A DNA stretch of 64,000 bases from positions 1 to 64,000 of the forward strand of contig NZ_JAIWPR010000023.1 in the NCBI RefSeq assembly GCF_021191635.1. Direction: 5' to 3'. The notes under the pieces were generated by a model, which was given only the letters and a program-made list of their open reading frames with translations, had not been told where the DNA came from and ran no database searches. Source of the stretch: Alterluteimonas quercicellularis (lineage in GTDB: Bacteria; Pseudomonadota; Gammaproteobacteria; Xanthomonadales; Xanthomonadaceae). The position numbers and the translations under genes are program-made. How positions within the stretch are numbered: the first letter of the stretch is position 1; each line of letters begins with the position of its first letter. Positions 1 to 38,393 of this stretch are shown here, piece by piece.

Positions 1-237
1 CCCGCCGCGGCGTCCGGCGCAGCGCCCGCGGCGGAAGCCGCGCCGCCCACCGCCGCCCCTCCCGCCGTGCGCGGCCGCGTGCTGCGCGAGGTCCCGGCCG
101 ACCCGCCGGCGGCCGCCGGCGCGCCATGGCAGCCCTTCGTCCTGCTGTCGCTGCTGGCCTGCTGCCTCGGCCTCGGCGGCTGGCGCTACCGCCGCTCGCA
201 GGCCGCCCTCTCCCTCCCGGATGCCCCTACGCCATGA
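1..237 (+). CDS. C-terminal fragment of a membrane-anchored protein, probably a CobN/HmuS-like chelatase
   Basis: This reading frame enters from outside the window and stops at a TGA that overlaps the next ATG (ATGA). Visible are an Ala/Pro-rich linker and one hydrophobic segment (LLSLLACCLGLGGW) followed by a short basic tail, so this end is a C-terminal membrane anchor. The catalytic part is not present. The CobN/HmuS assignment is inferred only from context: an ExbB-like and a DUF2149 gene follow directly, and a HmuR-like receptor lies opposite. That gene set is known from the hmu haem-uptake loci of Bacteroidetes, where the large protein is a CobN-type chelatase homologue. Any other membrane-anchored protein with this tail would fit the sequence equally well. 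Confidence 0.5.
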   Translation, partial: PAAASGAAPAAEAAPPTAAPPAVRGRVLREVPADPPAAAGAPWQPFVLLSLLACCLGLGGWRYRRSQAALSLPDAPTP

Positions 238-728
238 ACTCGCTCGAAGCCCTGCTCTACGACGTCGCCCACCTGTTCCTGTGGCCGGTGCTGCTGCTGA
301 TCCTGCTGGCGCTCGGCTACGCCTTCCTCGTGCTCGGACAGTTCCTGTTCGAGGCGGTGCAGCGCCGCCGCGGGCGCCACCGCTCCGAGCTCGCCGCCGT
401 GCACGCGCGCGGCGCGGCGATCAGTTCCGACGACCTCGAACTGTGGATCCTGCGGCGCCTGGAATGGCTGCGGATCACCGCGCGCACGGCGCCGATGCTG
501 GGCCTGGTGGCGACCATGATCCCGATGGGCCCGGCGCTGCTGGCGCTGACCCGAAACGACGCGCAGGCGGTGGGCGAGAACCTGGTGGTCGCCTTCTCCG
601 CGGTGATCCTGGCGCTGGTCGCGGCCAGCATCGCCTTCCTGGTGCTCACCGTGCGCCGGCGCTGGCTGCTGGAGGAGCTGCGCGCGATCGAGCGCGCGCA
701 GGCCGCGGCGCCGGCGGAGGCCGGCTGA
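234..728 (+). CDS. MotA/TolQ/ExbB-type proton channel family protein
   Basis: 164 aa. The ATG at 234 overlaps the stop of the upstream gene, and its own TGA overlaps the next ATG at 728, so the three genes are translationally coupled. There is an N-terminal hydrophobic segment (residues about 12-33) and two C-terminal ones around TAPMLGLVATMIPMGPALL and VVAFSAVILALVAASIAFLVL. These match the core of the TolQ/ExbB fold. The likely role is an energy-transducing inner-membrane channel using proton-motive force, with the DUF2149 protein as its small ExbD-like partner. It is shorter than classical ExbB (about 240 aa), as expected for the compact version found in CobN-linked operons. The longer frame starting upstream at 126 lies inside the preceding gene and is not used. 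Confidence 0.8.
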   Translation: MNSLEALLYDVAHLFLWPVLLLILLALGYAFLVLGQFLFEAVQRRRGRHRSELAAVHARGAAISSDDLELWILRRLEWLRITARTAPMLGLVATMIPMGPALLALTRNDAQAVGENLVVAFSAVILALVAASIAFLVLTVRRRWLLEELRAIERAQAAAPAEAG

Positions 729-1088: not shown

Positions 1089-1108
1089 TCGCGCGAGCGC
1101 GCGCCTAC
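1089..1108. repeat. REP-type palindrome, reverse orientation
   Basis: GC-only palindromic core followed by CTAC on the + strand, a variant of the repeat family seen throughout the window. It overlaps the last codon of the thioredoxin gene and fills the convergent intergenic space. Confidence 0.6.
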
Positions 1109-1680
1109 GGGGGCGGAACGGCCTGTGCGCCGGCGCGTTCGACCCAGGCGCGCAGCACCGGCGCCAGGCCCTCGTAGCGGCGCCCGGCCCAACCGCTGGC
1201 CAGCACCGTGCCGTCGCGGTCCAGCAGCACCAGGTTCGGCGGCGCCATGCCGCCCAGTGCGCGCAGCCCCGGCATGCGCTCGACACGGCGGTGGTCGATC
1301 GCCGGCCACGGCATCGCCTGCCGGGCCATGTAGCGGTGCATCTCGCGCTCGGACGCGTCGAGGCTGACGTAGACCACCTCGGTATCGGCGCCGGCCGCGC
1401 GCAGCGCGTCGTGGACCGCGCGCAGTTCCGGCACGAAGGCGTGGCAGGGCGCGCACCAGTCCGCGCCGTAGTAGAGCGCCACGATCTCCGGCTCGCGCGG
1501 CCAGCGGTAGGCGGCGAAGCGCGGGCCCTGCGGGCGCACCAGCGCGCCGGCGACCGCCTCGCGCAGCCCGGGCGGCGCCGGCGCTGGATCGTTCGCGCGC
1601 GCGGGCGCGGCCGCCGTGGCCCACGCCAGCGCGGCCGCGAGCGCGAGGCGCGCGCTAGAACGAGAAGCGCAGGCTGGCAT
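1105..1680 (-). CDS. Periplasmic thioredoxin-like (TlpA/nucleoredoxin-type) protein
   Basis: 191 aa with an N-terminal signal peptide (residues 1-30, ending ATAAAPARA) and a thioredoxin-fold domain. The redox motif WCAPC (Cys76, Cys79) follows the strand EIVALYYGAD. A cis-Pro equivalent is seen at APPNLVLLD. It acts in the periplasm as a disulfide reductase or oxidoreductase. The start codon lies inside the 3' end of the TonB receptor gene (26-bp overlap), so it is the second gene of that operon. The receptor plug contains a CxxC-type pair (Cys99/Cys102) that could be its substrate; this is inference. The stop codon TAG is part of the GTAGG head of a REP palindrome. Confidence 0.85.
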   Translation of the reverse strand: MPACASRSSARLALAAALAWATAAAPARANDPAPAPPGLREAVAGALVRPQGPRFAAYRWPREPEIVALYYGADWCAPCHAFVPELRAVHDALRAAGADTEVVYVSLDASEREMHRYMARQAMPWPAIDHRRVERMPGLRALGGMAPPNLVLLDRDGTVLASGWAGRRYEGLAPVLRAWVERAGAQAVPPP

Positions 1681-3817
1681 GGACCGAGCGCGCGAAGCGC
1701 GGGCCGTAGACGTAGTCGCTGTCGCGCCCGGGGCCGGTCTCCAGGTCGCGCTGGCGCTGGTCGAACAGGTTGCGCACGCCCAGCGACAGGTCCCAGTGGC
1801 GCTCGCCCGCGCCGAAGTGCCGCGTCGCGCCGGCGTCCACCACCCAGAAGTCGCGCACGCGCCCGAGACGGGCGGTGTTGTTGTTGAGCACGTGCATGCG
1901 GCCGGTGTACTTGAGCCCGAGGTAGAGGTCCCAGGCCTCGCTCGGCGCCCAGGCCGCCTGCGCGACCCCGCTCCAGGCCGGGGTCTTGAGATAGTCGCGG
2001 GTGGCCAGCACGGTGTCGCCGTCGTCGAAGACCACTTGCGCCTCGTCGTAGCGCGAGCGGTACCAGGCCACGCCGCCGGTCAGGCGCAGCGCGTCGGCGG
2101 CCTGCCAGCCGATGTTGGTCTCGAACCCGGCCACGCGCGAGCCGGACGCGTTCTCGCGCACCTGGTAGAGCGCGCCGTCGCCGTCGCGGCGGATCTCGCC
2201 GAGCACGAAGGTGTCGCGGATGCGCGTCCACGATACCGCGGCGTCCCACATCCAGCGCGGGTCGGCCGGGTCGGAACGCCAGTCCAGGCCGAGCATGGCG
2301 GTGGTGGCGCGCTCCTCCGACAACCCCTCGGCGTTGCGGATGCGCACCGGCTCCGCGCCGAGGGTGTCCACGTGCAGGTCCTCGCTGAAGATCTCCGGCG
2401 CGCGGAAGCCGGTGGAGATCCCGGCGCGCAGCTTGAGCCCCTCGCTGGCCTGGAAGGCCAGCGCCGCGCGCGGCGAGAACACCGCGTCGTCGAGCGTGGA
2501 GCTCTTGTCCGCGCGCGCGCCCAGCACCAGGTCGATCGCCTCGCCGACCGCCCACTCGTCCTGCACGAAGACGCCCAGGTTGCTGAAGGTCTCCTTCCCG
2601 GCGCGCGCGAGCACCGCGCCGGCGGCGTCGCGGTTCTCGTCGCGCACGCTCTCTCGCCGGTACTGCGCGCCGAACGCGATGAGGTGCGCGCCGGCGCGCC
2701 AGTTCACCTGGCTGTCCAGGTAGTGCAGCGGGTTCTCGGTGTAGCCGTACTGGGCGTAGGCGCGCGCGGCCGCGCTGCCGGGCCGGGCGGGGTCGAGCTC
2801 GCCCGGGTCGTAGCCCGGATCGGCCGGGTCGGTCGCCACGTCGCCCAGGCCGCCGTAGAAGCTGTCGCGCTCGATGTAGGCGAAGGAGTAGCCGAGGCTG
2901 AAGTCGAGGTCGTCGCCGACGATCTGGTCCCAGTGCAGGCCGCCGCGGTGGTAGTCGGTGTCCAGCGATTCGGCGACGTTGGCCAGCCATTCCGGCTGGT
3001 CGAGGCGGTTGCCGCCGCGCCGCGATTCGCGGGTGAACTGGTAGTCCGCGCGCAGCGTGCCGCCCTCGCCGACCGCCAGCCAGCCCTGCGCGCCGGCGAC
3101 CTTGCGGTCCTTCTCGGTGATCTCGCTGTAGCCGTCGCCGTCGAAGTCGATCGCGTCGTTGCGCGCGGCCTGGCCCACCAGCGACAGGCCGTAGCGGCCG
3201 CCGGCGTCGACCCGGTCGACGCGGCCGTCGAGCACGTGCAGCGGCTCGCCCTTCTGCACCTCGGTGGCGGCCTGCACGAAGCCGCCGCTGCGCAGCGGCC
3301 GCTCGGAGACCAGGTTGACCACGCCGGCCACCGCGCCCGGCCCGTAAAGCGCCGAGCCGCCGCCCTTGACCACCTCGATGCGGTCGATGAAGGCGGCCGG
3401 GATCTGCTCGATGCCGTACACCCCGCCCAGCGTGGACAGCAGCGGCGTGCCGTCGAACAACAGCTGGCTGTACGCCCCGCCCAGCCCCAGCAGCTGCACC
3501 TCCGAGGTGTTGCAGTTCTGGCAGTTGCTCTCCACCCGCAGGCCGTTGATCAGCTCCACCGCGCGCGAGAAGTCGGTCGCGCCGCGCAGCCGGATGTCCT
3601 CGCCGCGCAGCACCTCGGTGCGCACCGGCACGTCGGCCAGCAGGCGCTCGGTGCGCGTGGCGGTGCTGACGGTGACCTGCACCGCGTCCAGTTCCACCGC
3701 GCGGCGGGCGCCCTCGTCGGCGGCTGCCACGGGCAAGGCGGACAGGGCGAGCGAGACGGCGACCGGCAGGCGGCGGGGCGCCGGGCGCGGCGGGCGCGGC
3801 GGGACGGTTCGGGACAT
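1655..3817 (-). CDS. TonB-dependent outer-membrane receptor, HmuR/haem-receptor-like
   Basis: 720 aa. There is a signal peptide (about residues 1-33), a plug domain (about 45-170) and a 22-strand barrel ending in aromatic F (RFSF). The plug has NCQNC (Cys99, Cys102) followed by LLGLGGAYSQLLFDG and VVKGGGSALYGPGAVAGVV, which resemble Bacteroidetes HmuR-type haem receptors. The expected role is TonB-driven import of haem, another tetrapyrrole or a metal complex. It is followed by an overlapping thioredoxin gene and faces the CobN/ExbB/DUF2149 operon. A sigma70-like promoter on the minus strand (TTGCTA, 17 bp, TATATC) lies upstream with an MntR-box-like palindrome across its spacer and -10. Control by manganese or iron status is therefore likely. 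The actual ligand cannot be read from sequence. Confidence 0.88.
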   Translation of the reverse strand: MSRTVPPRPPRPAPRRLPVAVSLALSALPVAAADEGARRAVELDAVQVTVSTATRTERLLADVPVRTEVLRGEDIRLRGATDFSRAVELINGLRVESNCQNCNTSEVQLLGLGGAYSQLLFDGTPLLSTLGGVYGIEQIPAAFIDRIEVVKGGGSALYGPGAVAGVVNLVSERPLRSGGFVQAATEVQKGEPLHVLDGRVDRVDAGGRYGLSLVGQAARNDAIDFDGDGYSEITEKDRKVAGAQGWLAVGEGGTLRADYQFTRESRRGGNRLDQPEWLANVAESLDTDYHRGGLHWDQIVGDDLDFSLGYSFAYIERDSFYGGLGDVATDPADPGYDPGELDPARPGSAAARAYAQYGYTENPLHYLDSQVNWRAGAHLIAFGAQYRRESVRDENRDAAGAVLARAGKETFSNLGVFVQDEWAVGEAIDLVLGARADKSSTLDDAVFSPRAALAFQASEGLKLRAGISTGFRAPEIFSEDLHVDTLGAEPVRIRNAEGLSEERATTAMLGLDWRSDPADPRWMWDAAVSWTRIRDTFVLGEIRRDGDGALYQVRENASGSRVAGFETNIGWQAADALRLTGGVAWYRSRYDEAQVVFDDGDTVLATRDYLKTPAWSGVAQAAWAPSEAWDLYLGLKYTGRMHVLNNNTARLGRVRDFWVVDAGATRHFGAGERHWDLSLGVRNLFDQRQRDLETGPGRDSDYVYGPRFARSVHASLRFSF

Positions 3818-3871: not shown

Positions 3872-3893
3872 CGATATAGCTTATGCTATATCG
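3872..3893. promoter_or_regulatory. MntR-box-like operator palindrome
   Basis: GATATAGCTTATGCTATATC (3873-3892) is a perfect 8+8 palindrome, 9+9 with the flanking C/G. It contains the ATAGC-N4-GCTAT core of the enterobacterial MntR box. A further half site (TATAGC) follows at 3894-3899. It lies between the receptor gene and the mntR-like gene and overlaps the receptor promoter. Binding by the adjacent regulator is inferred. Confidence 0.7.
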
Positions 3894-3901
3894 TATAGCA
3901 A
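3873..3901 (-). promoter_or_regulatory. Predicted promoter of the TonB receptor operon
   Basis: On the minus strand, TTGCTA (3901-3896) is separated by exactly 17 bp from TATATC (3878-3873), about 56 bp upstream of the receptor ATG. The palindrome covers the spacer and the -10 box, the usual arrangement for repression. Confidence 0.6.
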
Positions 3902-3988: not shown

Positions 3989-4471
3989 ATGTCGAACAAG
4001 CGCCCCGCCCCGCGGGAGGCCTCCACCGCCTCCGCGCTGGTCGACGCCCGCATCCAGGTCGAGAGCTTCCGGCAGGTCCGCGAGGCCCATCGCTCGGAAC
4101 TCGTCGAGGACTACGTCGAGCTGATCTCCGACCTCATCGCCGACGGCGGCGAGGCGCGCCAGGTCGACATCGCCGAGCGCATGGGCGTGGCCCAGCCGAC
4201 CGTGGCGCGGATGCTGCAGCGCCTGGCGCGCGAGGGCCTGGTGTCGAAGCGCCCCTACCGCGGCGTGTTCCTGACCGAGTCCGGCGAAGCCCTGGCCAGC
4301 GCCAGCCGCGAGCGCCACCGCACGGTCGAGGACTTCCTGCTCGCGCTGGGGGTGCCGGCGGACATCGCCCGCCGCGACGCCGAGGGCATCGAGCACCACG
4401 TCAGCCGCGAGACGCTGGAGATCTTCGCCGCCTTCGCGCGCGGCACGCGCAAGCCCGGCCGCCGCGCGTAG
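3989..4471 (+). CDS. mntR: DtxR/MntR-family metal-dependent transcriptional regulator
   Basis: 160 aa. The start at ATG 3989 (MSNKRPAP) is chosen because family homology begins about 25 residues later. A winged helix (about residues 30-95, with [20 protein letters not shown] as recognition region) is followed by a dimerisation/metal domain with the family motif [10 protein letters not shown]. Proteins of this type bind Mn(II) or Fe(II) and repress metal uptake genes. The gene is divergent from the HmuR-like receptor, with an MntR-like palindrome in the intergenic region. It probably controls the receptor and perhaps itself. No mntH lies in the window. An iron-sensing DtxR role is the alternative. 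Confidence 0.85.
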
Positions 4472-4637: not shown

Positions 4638-4668
4638 TTGTCCAGGTACATATTGTTACTTTATAACA
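4638..4668 (+). promoter_or_regulatory. Predicted promoter with Zur-box-like operator for the COG0523 gene
   Basis: TTGTCC (4638-4643), an 18-bp spacer, then TATAAC (4662-4667). The -10 is embedded in TGTTACTTTATAACA (4654-4668), an inverted repeat with TGTTA/TAACA arms that resembles the Zur box core (GTTATa..tATAAC). It ends 21 bp before the start codon. Zinc-dependent repression by Zur is inferred from motif plus gene family. Confidence 0.6.
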
Positions 4669-4689: not shown

Positions 4690-6033
4690 GTGCCCGTGTC
4701 CCGACCCCGCCCCGCCGATGCCCGCCTTCCCGTCACCGTCCTGTCCGGCTTCCTCGGCGCCGGCAAGACCACCCTGCTCAACCGCGTGCTGCGCAACCGC
4801 GAAGGCCGCCGGGTCGCGGTGATCGTCAACGACATGAGCGAGATCAACATCGACGCGCAGCTGGTGCGCGCCGGCGACGCGGCCCTGCGCCGCACCGAGG
4901 AGACCCTGGTCGAGTTCAGCAACGGCTGCATCTGCTGCACGCTGCGCGACGACCTGCTGCAGGAGGTGCGCCGGCTGGCCGAAAGCGGTCGCTACGACTA
5001 CCTGTTGATCGAGTCCACCGGGATCGGCGAGCCGATGCCGGTCGCGGCGACCTTCGCCGTGCGCGACGCCGACGGCTTCAGCCTGTCCGACGTCGCCCGC
5101 CTGGACACGATGGCGACCGTGGTCGACGGCGCCTCGTTCCTGGCCGATTTCGCCTCGGCCCAGCGCCTGGCCGACCGCGGCCTGCAGGCCGGGCCCGGCG
5201 ACGCGCGCGGCGTGGTCGACCTGCTCGCCGAGCAGATCGAGTTCGCCGACGTGCTGGTGATCAGCAAGTGCGACCTGCTGCCGCCGGGGCGGGCCGAATG
5301 GATCCGCGCGGTGCTGCGGGCGATGAACCGCGACGCGCTGCTGGTCGACTCGCACGGCGACGACGTGCCGCTGTCGCTGCTGCTCGACACCGGCCGCTTC
5401 GACTTCGCGCGCGCGCAGCGCGCGCCGGGCTGGATGCAGGAACTGCGCGGCGAGCACACGCCCGAGACCGAGGCCTACGGCATCGGCAGCTTCGTCTACC
5501 GCGCGCGGCGCCCGTTCCATCCCGAACGCTACGCCCGCCTGCTCGCCGAGGGCCTGCCGGACGTGCTGCGCAGCAAGGGCTTCTTCTGGCTGGCCAGCCG
5601 CATGGACTGGGTGGGCGAACTGTCGACCGTCGGCGGCTCGACCCGGCACCAGGCCATCGGCTTCTGGTACGCGGCGCGCTCGCGCGTGCGCGGCGGCGGG
5701 CCCGACCGGCCGCCCGCGCCGCGCCACGGTCCCGCCGCACCGCTGACCGCGTTCGGCCGGCAGCGCCTGCAGGCCGCGGCCTGGACCGACCCGCCGCCCG
5801 CCCGCGAGGAGACCGGCGACGAGGCCGAGCACGCGGCGCTGCGCGCGCTGTGGCATCCGCTGTGGGGCGACCGGCGCCAGGAGCTGGCGCTGATCGGCAT
5901 CGGGCTCGACCGCGAGGCGACCGTCGCCGCGCTCGACGCCTGCCTGCTCGACGACCGCGAGATGGCGGCCGGACCGGAGGGCTGGCGCGAACTGCCCGAT
6001 CCCTTCCCCGCCTGGGGACGCGCGGCGGCCTGA
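4690..6033 (+). CDS. COG0523 (CobW/ZigA/YeiR-type) GTP-dependent metallochaperone
   Basis: 447 aa, GTG start at 4690; the ATG at 4679 is out of frame. The G3E-family P-loop GTPase domain begins with GFLGAGKTT (residues 20-28) and carries the metal-binding CxCC motif (Cys80, Cys82, Cys83 in [11 protein letters not shown]). The guanine motif appears as ISKCDLL. A CobW C-terminal domain follows (about 300-440). Such proteins deliver Zn(II) or another metal to client enzymes, often under Zur control when zinc is scarce. A Zur-box-like site overlaps the promoter. The neighbouring metal regulator and receptor suggest a metal-homeostasis cluster. No His-rich metal store is seen. Confidence 0.88.
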
Positions 6034-37764: not shown

Positions 37765-38393
37765 CGATCGAGCTAGCTGCGCGGCAGCGAACGGCATCAG
37801 GCGCATCAACCCGTCGATCCCGATTTTCTGAGCTGCCTGCGCGGCAGCGAACTACGACCTGGTGCTGATGATGATCTCGCACCTCTTCTGAGCTGCCTGT
37901 GCGGCAGCGAACGTACATCCACCCCCAGCCGAATCCCCGTGGGACTTCTGAGCTGCCTGCGCGGCAGCGAACGGCCTGGAGTGGCAGGCGATCCCGTTCC
38001 CCGACTTCTGAGCTGCCTGCGCGGCAGCGAACGGCTCCATCGTTCGTCCGCCGTGCGCCAGTCCACTCCTGAGCTGCCTGCGCGGCAGCGAACGCGACGC
38101 AGACGGGGAACCTGGCCCGAATCAGCTTCTGAGCTGCCTGCGCGGCAGCGAACGTCGAGCAGGCGTTGCTTGGCCCTGCGGATCGCTTCTGAGCTGCCTG
38201 CGCGGCAGCGAACTCCCTGGCCCGACAGGGTAGGGGTCTTCGCCACTTCTGAGCTACCTGCGCGGCAGCGAACAGGAGGGCGACACCATCCAGGAGGCGT
38301 GGAACCTTCTGAGCTGCCTGCGCGGCAGCGAACCACCCGGCGGCGCGCAGCGCTTCGACCTGCAACTTCTGAGCTGCCTGCGCGGCAGATCGC
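37765..38393 (-). CRISPR. Orphan type I-F-like CRISPR array, 11 repeats / 10 spacers
   Basis: 28-bp repeats at 60-bp spacing with 32-nt spacers (one of 33 nt between 38033 and 38065). On the minus strand the repeat starts GTTCGCTGCC, has the hairpin CTGCCGCGCAGGCAG and ends CAGCTCAGAAG, the type I-F consensus. Repeats start at 37765 (degenerate), 37825, 37885, 37945, 38005, 38066, 38126, 38186, 38246, 38306 and 38366 (degenerate). Several carry single changes. Both outermost repeats are damaged on their outer edge. No cas gene and no AT-rich leader lies within the window. The flanking stretch 37712-38557 holds no other gene. Confidence 0.95.

What the first reader, a model, noticed from the sequence alone, without database searches (positions are those of the whole stretch)
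3872..3901. MntR-box-like operator across the promoter of a haem-receptor-like TonB gene
Seen: a perfect palindrome with the ATAGC-N4-GCTAT core of the MntR box, a well-spaced -35/-10 pair overlapping it, and an MntR-family gene beside it. Known: MntR boxes control manganese transport, whereas HmuR-type receptors are normally under Fur. Inference: the receptor and the CobN-like system it faces may handle a manganese- or metal-tetrapyrrole-linked substrate, or haem uptake may be switched by manganese status.
Basis: partly seen in the sequence, partly recalled or inferred. Interest (0 to 1): 0.75.

Follow-up and report, generated by a model that had tools for sequence, protein, structure and literature searches.

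The report
MntR operator on metal receptor genes
A manganese-sensing switch sits on the promoter of an outer-membrane receptor gene, as was recently reported in a related bacterium, and in some other relatives the same receptor gene seems to carry a zinc switch instead.

Summary
Window 3872-3893 is a perfect 22-bp palindrome with the ATAGC-N4-GCTAT core also found at E. coli mntH. It is the only exact core in the 4.5-Mb genome and lies over a TTGCTA-17-TATATC promoter, between a TonB-dependent receptor gene with its thioredoxin-fold partner and a true mntR. The core is kept in 6 of 6 other Luteimonas genomes in which the receptor faces mntR. The "haem receptor" label is not supported: the receptor is of the CQNC type. 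A 2026 paper (PMC13217887) already showed MntR control of the orthologous pair in Stenotrophomonas maltophilia, so the core finding is a new member of a known system.

Two things go beyond that paper. In the seven Luteimonas genomes where the receptor faces mntR, no Nramp (MntH) gene was found. And across 20 orthologous receptors, 15 have an MntR core; of the other 5, 4 have a match to the published Pseudomonas Zur consensus, and 3 of the 5 are divergent from a zigA-like zinc-GTPase gene with no mntR between. The receptor tree needs two changes of the MntR label. Five Stenotrophomonas promoters carry both boxes. The regulator seems to have been exchanged on one receptor; Zur binding is inferred only.

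The parts
3872..3893 (.). MntR operator, perfect 22-bp palindrome (core 3876-3889)
   Evidence: same core at E. coli mntH (L193)
3896..3901 (-). -35 hexamer TTGCTA of the receptor promoter
   Evidence: sequence; same spacing in G024, G008, G035, G022, absent in G014 and G300
3873..3878 (-). -10 hexamer TATATC, inside the operator arm
   Evidence: sequence; TATAAA or TATATT at this place in G024, G008, G035, G022
1655..3817 (-). TonB-dependent receptor, CQNC type (C99, C102)
   Evidence: Pfam Plug and barrel; CQNC; model mean pLDDT 85
1105..1680 (-). periplasmic thioredoxin-fold protein with CAPC, gene overlapping the receptor's 3' end
   Evidence: Thioredoxin_8; CAPC in sequence; 60-91% identical matches beside the receptor in the other 19 loci
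3989..4471 (+). mntR, with D41, E44, H110, E132, E135, H136 at the metal-ligand places
   Evidence: NF008273 240.9 bits; best solved structure 2h09, 'Transcriptional regulator mntR', 3e-54; positions, ligand list recalled
4655..4667 (.). Zur-type box GTTACTTTATAAC before zigA, the only GTTA-N5-TAAC in the genome
   Evidence: the backwards control occurs 8 times; matches the published P. aeruginosa Zur consensus
4690..6033 (+). ZigA-like COG0523 GTPase
   Evidence: cobW PF02492; NF038288 562 bits, just under its cut-off of 600
1..237 (+). 3' end of a CobN-like gene, cut by the contig end; no Pfam hit on its own
   Evidence: no family; DNA 90% identical to the 3' end of the L002 gene, whose product scores 955 bits for CobN-Mg_chel
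234..728 (+). MotA/TolQ/ExbB-like protein of the CobN unit
   Evidence: PF01618
728..1057 (+). DUF2149 protein of the CobN unit
   Evidence: PF09919

Best explanation
The palindrome is an MntR operator. When Mn(II) is sufficient, Mn-loaded MntR binds over the spacer and -10 element of the receptor promoter and blocks transcription of the receptor-thioredoxin operon; it may also affect the divergent mntR gene. Under Mn shortage the block lifts and a TonB-driven outer-membrane receptor with a plug CQNC motif is made to bring in Mn(II), or a Mn-containing complex. The periplasmic CAPC thioredoxin-fold protein would keep the two plug cysteines reduced. Likelihood by step: MntR operator on this promoter, about 0.95 (inferred here from sequence and conservation; supported by reporters for the S. 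maltophilia orthologue); repression by Mn-MntR, about 0.9; the receptor moves Mn, about 0.5; thioredoxin-fold protein as reductase of CQNC, about 0.4 (also proposed in PMC13217887).
For: The only exact core in the genome is here. An exact core lies within 400 nt upstream of mntR in 45 of 80 relatives and at E. coli mntH. It stands before the receptor in 15 of 20 orthologues, including Stenotrophomonas, where the receptor does not face mntR and has a box of its own about 3 kb away. MntR passes its family cut-off. PMC13217887 (abstract, results 3.1 to 3.8 and passages read) reports for the S. maltophilia orthologue a box between -35 and -10, expression only under joint Mn and Fe limitation, loss of expression at 80 nM Mn, and higher expression in a mntR deletion.
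Against: No binding or expression data exist for this genome. In S. maltophilia, deleting the receptor or its partner gave no growth phenotype, and Mn still lowered expression without MntR. Cysteine ligands suit Zn or Cu better than Mn (general chemistry). 35 of 80 relatives have no exact core within 400 nt upstream of mntR; 12 of 22 Luteimonas mntR genes have none within 300 nt even with two mismatches. Five of 20 receptor orthologues have no MntR core. Among 120 listed homologues of the receptor, 13 lack CQNC, 6 of them with CQSC. The best structural matches are siderophore, cobalamin, PQQ and copper receptors, which does not point to Mn.
Confidence: 0.78

Rival explanations
1. The receptor is a general divalent-metal or metallophore receptor whose regulator is exchangeable: Zur in some lineages, MntR in others, perhaps both in Stenotrophomonas. 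The regulator reflects which shortage the cell answers, not a fixed substrate.
For: Published P. aeruginosa Zur consensus found in 4 of 5 receptor promoters without an MntR core, 5 of 5 Stenotrophomonas promoters (one clade) and 0 of 10 other MntR-type promoters. Three of the 5 are divergent from a zigA-like gene with no mntR between. C99, C102, E479, D480 and H482 are invariant in all 20; only two positions set MntR-type apart under the criterion used, neither in those motifs. Tree: two changes of the label, also when only well-supported branches count; holding the 15 together is disfavoured, p-AU 0.033.
Against: Zur binding is inferred from consensus only; presence of zur in these genomes was not tested. 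G078 lacks a consensus match. The stricter GTTA-N5-TAAC fits only 3 of the 5. A loose scan also gave a one-mismatch Zur-like hit in MntR-type G215. The AU test was run after the tree had been seen. Substrate is unknown in every case.
Confidence: 0.5
2. The box only autoregulates mntR and does not control the receptor.
For: The box lies in a shared divergent region, 96 bp before mntR.
Against: It covers the receptor's own -35/-10, with the spacing kept in four relatives; 8 orthologues outside Luteimonas have a core before the receptor where it does not face mntR; reporter data for S. maltophilia.
Confidence: 0.05
3. Haem or metal-tetrapyrrole uptake switched by manganese, joined to the CobN system.
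For: The CobN unit is adjacent in 4 of 20 receptor loci: the window, G014, G078 and G112.
Against: Below the haem-receptor cut-off; no haem receptor among the 50 structural matches listed; the CobN unit has its own receptor and no MntR core upstream in 3 of 3; 16 of 20 receptor loci show no CobN hit, 11 read over 18-20 kb and five Stenotrophomonas over 5 kb.
Confidence: 0.06

Closest known systems
MntR-controlled TBDR-pTFP module of Stenotrophomonas maltophilia Sm18 (PMC13217887)
   Same: Orthologous CQNC receptor (62-64% identity to five Stenotrophomonas receptors; Sm18 itself was not compared) and CAPC thioredoxin-fold partner, MntR box in the promoter spacer
   Different: Here the receptor faces mntR itself, Nramp MntH was not found, and mntP has a yybP-ykoY riboswitch but no MntR core with up to one mismatch. 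The paper's main text has no mention of Zur.
mntH-mntR divergent pair (E. coli-type MntR box and regulator)
   Same: Same operator core and regulator family
   Different: Target is an outer-membrane receptor, not the inner-membrane Nramp importer
MnoT, TonB-dependent Mn receptor of Burkholderia thailandensis (PMC8602904, passages)
   Same: TonB-dependent receptor induced by low Mn
   Different: Works with a T6SS effector, TseM; neither a TseM-like gene nor the sequence relation to MnoT was looked for here
Zur-controlled PA1922-PA1925 of P. aeruginosa (PMC4542158 and PMC10393844, passages)
   Same: Receptor, CobN-like, ExbD-like and hypothetical gene, like the neighbouring CobN unit
   Different: A different receptor from the MntR-box one (not compared by sequence); exact Zur consensus not met upstream of the CobN-unit receptor in 3 of 3 relatives; within Pseudomonas, Zur control of PA1922 is said to be peculiar to P. 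aeruginosa
OprC copper receptor of P. aeruginosa (PMC8610252, search listing only)
   Same: Among the structural matches; a listed abstract names a CxxxM-HxM metal site
   Different: Copper and CxxxM-HxM there; CQNC here

Membership tests
E. coli-type MntR box | inverted ATAGC-N4-GCTAT core | tested here: met
   exact; same core at E. coli mntH
E. coli-type MntR box | bound by Mn-MntR | not testable with these tools
   needs gel shift or footprint
MntR (NF008273) | score over curated cut-off | tested here: met
   240.9 against 153 bits
CQNC TBDR-pTFP pair | CQNC in the receptor plug | tested here: met
   residues 99-102; all 20 orthologues
CQNC TBDR-pTFP pair | adjacent thioredoxin-fold gene with CAPC | tested here: met
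   1105-1680
CQNC TBDR-pTFP pair under MntR | MntR box in the promoter spacer | tested here: met
Complete five-gene MntR module of Stenotrophomonas | MntH present | tested here: not met
   no Nramp in G000
Complete five-gene MntR module of Stenotrophomonas | MntR box before mntP | tested here: not met
   none with up to one mismatch in L150
HmuR-type haem receptor | haem-receptor family score | tested here: not met
   TIGR01785 84.8 against 316.85 bits
Zur box (zigA promoter) | match to GWWAYWNNNTWHCR | tested here: met
   window and G014
Zur box (zigA promoter) | zur gene present in the genome | not tested
   no search for zur was made
Zur box (zigA promoter) | bound by Zn-Zur | not testable with these tools
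   needs gel shift or footprint

The most novel reading that the evidence does not exclude
The CQNC receptor-thioredoxin module is an exchangeable cassette of the zinc and manganese regulons that has changed between Zur and MntR at least twice. In the Luteimonas of the window, mntR lies between receptor and zigA, so that the receptor stands where mntH stands elsewhere. Stenotrophomonas carries both boxes, and Zur may be the unexplained MntR-independent control reported there. If so, the receptor serves more than one metal or a shared metal complex.
Probability: 0.5. Interest if true: 0.65.

Novelty: new variant of a known kind. Interest (0 to 1): 0.5.

Why it matters
How Gram-negative bacteria carry manganese across the outer membrane is poorly known; one paper found an MntR-controlled receptor but no phenotype for it. 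If the same receptor is under Zur in relatives, with its putative metal-site residues unchanged, the substrate question becomes directly testable. It warns against reading substrate from regulator, names a candidate (Zur) for the unexplained second control in S. maltophilia, and offers Luteimonas, where no Nramp gene was found to mask it, as a better host for phenotype tests.

Tried and rejected
Generic sigma-70 scan: no promoter at its threshold. AATGTTATAACATT as a stand-alone Zur marker: 3 sites in 2 of 20 genomes, one of them before an ABC ATPase gene of unknown role, so used only as support. Zur control of the CobN unit: near matches upstream of its receptor in G014 (by eye), G112 and G078, but 0 of 3 meet the published consensus, so left as a lead. 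A cobalamin riboswitch near that receptor in G014 lies on the other strand. Phylum-wide search for the receptor gave 3 of 398 genomes, all three of the window's own family, so no wider regulator survey was possible. MntR tree: receptor-facing mntR genes group with the box-less Luteimonas ones (98/95), not with mntH-facing ones, but the fine order is unresolved. The first receptor tree kept MntR-only and MntR-plus-Zur as separate labels; it was rebuilt without two long outgroup rows and with one label, 'MntR core present', for the count used here. Sequence positions that split MntR-type from other receptors: two only.

Full report
What is there. The window starts at base 1 of contig C4 of a 4,515,788-base genome in 109 contigs, close to Luteimonas huabeiensis: mntR 98% and receptor 94% identical. 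At 3872-3893 lies CGATATAGC-TTAT-GCTATATCG, a perfect palindrome. On its left runs a TonB-dependent receptor gene (1655-3817, minus) with a thioredoxin-fold gene overlapping its end (1105-1680, minus). On its right lie mntR (3989-4471, plus) and a ZigA-like GTPase gene (4690-6033, plus). Convergent to these are the end of a CobN-like gene, a MotA/ExbB-like gene and a DUF2149 gene; in L. huabeiensis the full unit also has a second receptor in front.

More than chance. The core ATAGCN4GCTAT occurs once in the genome, with about 0.4 expected there and 0.006 in the window from the window's composition; the backwards control also occurs once in the genome. An exact core lies within 400 nt upstream of mntR in 45 of 80 named relatives, 14 of the 21 that I took as Lysobacteraceae by title among them. 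It is also at E. coli mntH, read from MG1655. The regulator passes the MntR equivalog cut-off, matches 2h09, 'Transcriptional regulator mntR', best among solved structures, and has D41, E44, H110, E132, E135 and H136 at the places of the B. subtilis MntR ligands (positions; ligand list recalled).

Promoter. On the receptor strand TTGCTA, 17 nt and TATATC straddle the operator. TTGCTA at the same distance is seen in G024, G008, G035 and G022, with TATAAA or TATATT as -10; one-letter variants stand in G112 and G215; G014 and G300 lack it. A bound repressor would cover the spacer and the -10.

Conservation. In Luteimonas 10 of 52 genomes hold the receptor and 22 of 52 hold MntR. Of the 22, 7 face the receptor with an exact core between, 3 face an Nramp gene (one exact core, two with one mismatch), and 12 face neither and have no core within 300 nt of the matched start, even with two mismatches. 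In the family sample 12 of 247 genomes hold the receptor. Both samples joined give 20 orthologues, all CQNC; 15 have an exact core within 330 nt upstream. Eight of the 15 lie outside Luteimonas (2 Xanthomonas, 5 Stenotrophomonas, G112) and there the receptor does not face mntR. So the box belongs to the receptor and not only to mntR.

No Nramp. PF01566 found nothing in G000 or in the other 8 Luteimonas receptor genomes searched (one is 89% complete); the tenth, G004, has one beside mntR. Nramp is rare in the genus anyway: over the cut-off in 2 of 13 Luteimonas of the family sample. MntP is present in G000 with a Mn riboswitch just over its gathering score, 45.7 against 45, and without a core at up to one mismatch. 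By exact matches the MntR regulon of this genome is this one intergenic region.

Known already. PMC13217887 (abstract, results 3.1 to 3.8, and passages) describes the S. maltophilia orthologues as an MntR-regulated TBDR-pTFP module. It gives reporter data in wild type and mntR deletion and proposes Mn coordination by CQNC and reduction by the thioredoxin-fold protein. Among its 103 genomes it found the complete five-gene set with three boxes only in Stenotrophomonas. Here two Xanthomonas genomes (G215, G260; genus from the contig-length match of G260 to X. codiaei) have MntR, Nramp, MntP and the receptor with its partner, and exact cores between mntR and mntH, before the receptor and before mntP.

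Regulator exchange. The five receptors without a core are G304, G030, G004, G124 and G078. In G004, G124 and G078 the receptor operon is divergent from a ZigA-like gene with no mntR between; in G004 a MerC gene leads the operon. The Zur consensus printed in PMC10393844 matches 4 of these 5 promoter regions; for G004 I scanned 590 nt in front of the receptor, merC included, against 333 nt for the others. G078 has only an imperfect GTTAT-N4-ATAAC. The consensus matches 5 of 5 Stenotrophomonas promoters, about 70 nt upstream of the MntR box, and 0 of 10 other MntR-type promoters; chance per promoter was 0.001 to 0.013 in shuffles. The stricter GTTA-N5-TAAC, called conserved in many proteobacterial Zur sites by PMC4176598 (passages), fits G304, G030 and G004 only. 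A loose scan gave a one-mismatch hit also in MntR-type G215. The five Stenotrophomonas are one clade, so count as one event; the same element is in 4 of 4 Stenotrophomonas loci that hold the receptor. In the window the only GTTA-N5-TAAC of the genome stands before zigA (its backwards control occurs 8 times). It is also before zigA in L. huabeiensis, G024 and G004, before a short 53-residue zigA match in G008, and beside mntR without zigA in G022.

Tree. With the label 'MntR core present' (15 rows against 5, two outgroup rows), the receptor tree needs two changes, also when only well-supported branches count; a tree holding the 15 together is disfavoured (p-AU 0.033, run after the first tree had been seen). 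Two gains, or a gain and a loss, fit equally. G030 and G004 have an mntR gene elsewhere yet a Zur-type receptor promoter, so loss of mntR does not explain the difference. Searches for CQNC, and for MntR with Zur and TonB-dependent receptor, listed no paper that by title or start of abstract describes such an exchange (listings only, apart from PMC13217887 and passages of PMC5387054).

Receptor. An alignment of 30 of the receptors (29 chosen from the 120 listed) keeps C99, Q100, N101, C102, E479, D480 and H482 invariant; among all 120, 107 have CQNC, 6 CQSC and 7 neither, some of these being partial. The model (mean pLDDT 85) matches Cir, PirA, PfeA, BtuB, PqqU and OprC among its best. Only two positions separate MntR-type from the five other receptors under the criterion used, neither in the CQNC or EDLH motif. 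This fits one substrate class under different regulators but does not identify it.

CobN unit. It neighbours the receptor pair in 4 of 20 loci (window, G014, G078, G112). P. aeruginosa PA1922-1925 lies in a Zur-regulated cluster (PMC4542158 passages), though PMC10393844 calls this control peculiar to that species within Pseudomonas. Here no MntR core was found before the unit's receptor in 3 of 3 relatives and the Zur consensus was not met exactly.

Verdict. The operator is real and its meaning close to published; the haem reading falls. The new and less certain part is the exchange of Zur and MntR on one receptor module.

Noticed in passing
window 37825-38333: Seven Rfam CRISPR-DR4 repeats on the minus strand, 60 nt apart or a multiple of about 60: a CRISPR array.
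   Followed up: no
L178, L157, L159 (G030, G009, G294): Box-less Luteimonas mntR genes sit near a flavodoxin gene and (G030, G009, by eye) thioredoxin and thioesterase genes, and in G294 near a ribonucleotide reductase small subunit; S. maltophilia L005 has a similar-looking reductase gene beside mntH (by eye). A link of MntR to ribonucleotide reductase is possible.
   Followed up: partly
L136:11328 (G022): A zigA-type Zur box stands beside mntR although no zigA match was found there: perhaps a trace of the older gene order.
   Followed up: partly
L096, L108, L146 (G215) and L100, L109, L153 (G260): Two Xanthomonas genomes carry the whole MntR module with three exact cores, which the published survey of 103 genomes reported only from Stenotrophomonas.
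   Followed up: yes
L123:5319-5556 (G014): Cobalamin riboswitch on the strand opposite to the CobN-unit receptor; its target gene was not worked out.
   Followed up: no
Luteimonas genus, 12 of 22 MntR genomes: mntR orthologues over the family cut-off with no recognisable MntR core within 300 nt upstream; their targets are unknown.
   Followed up: partly
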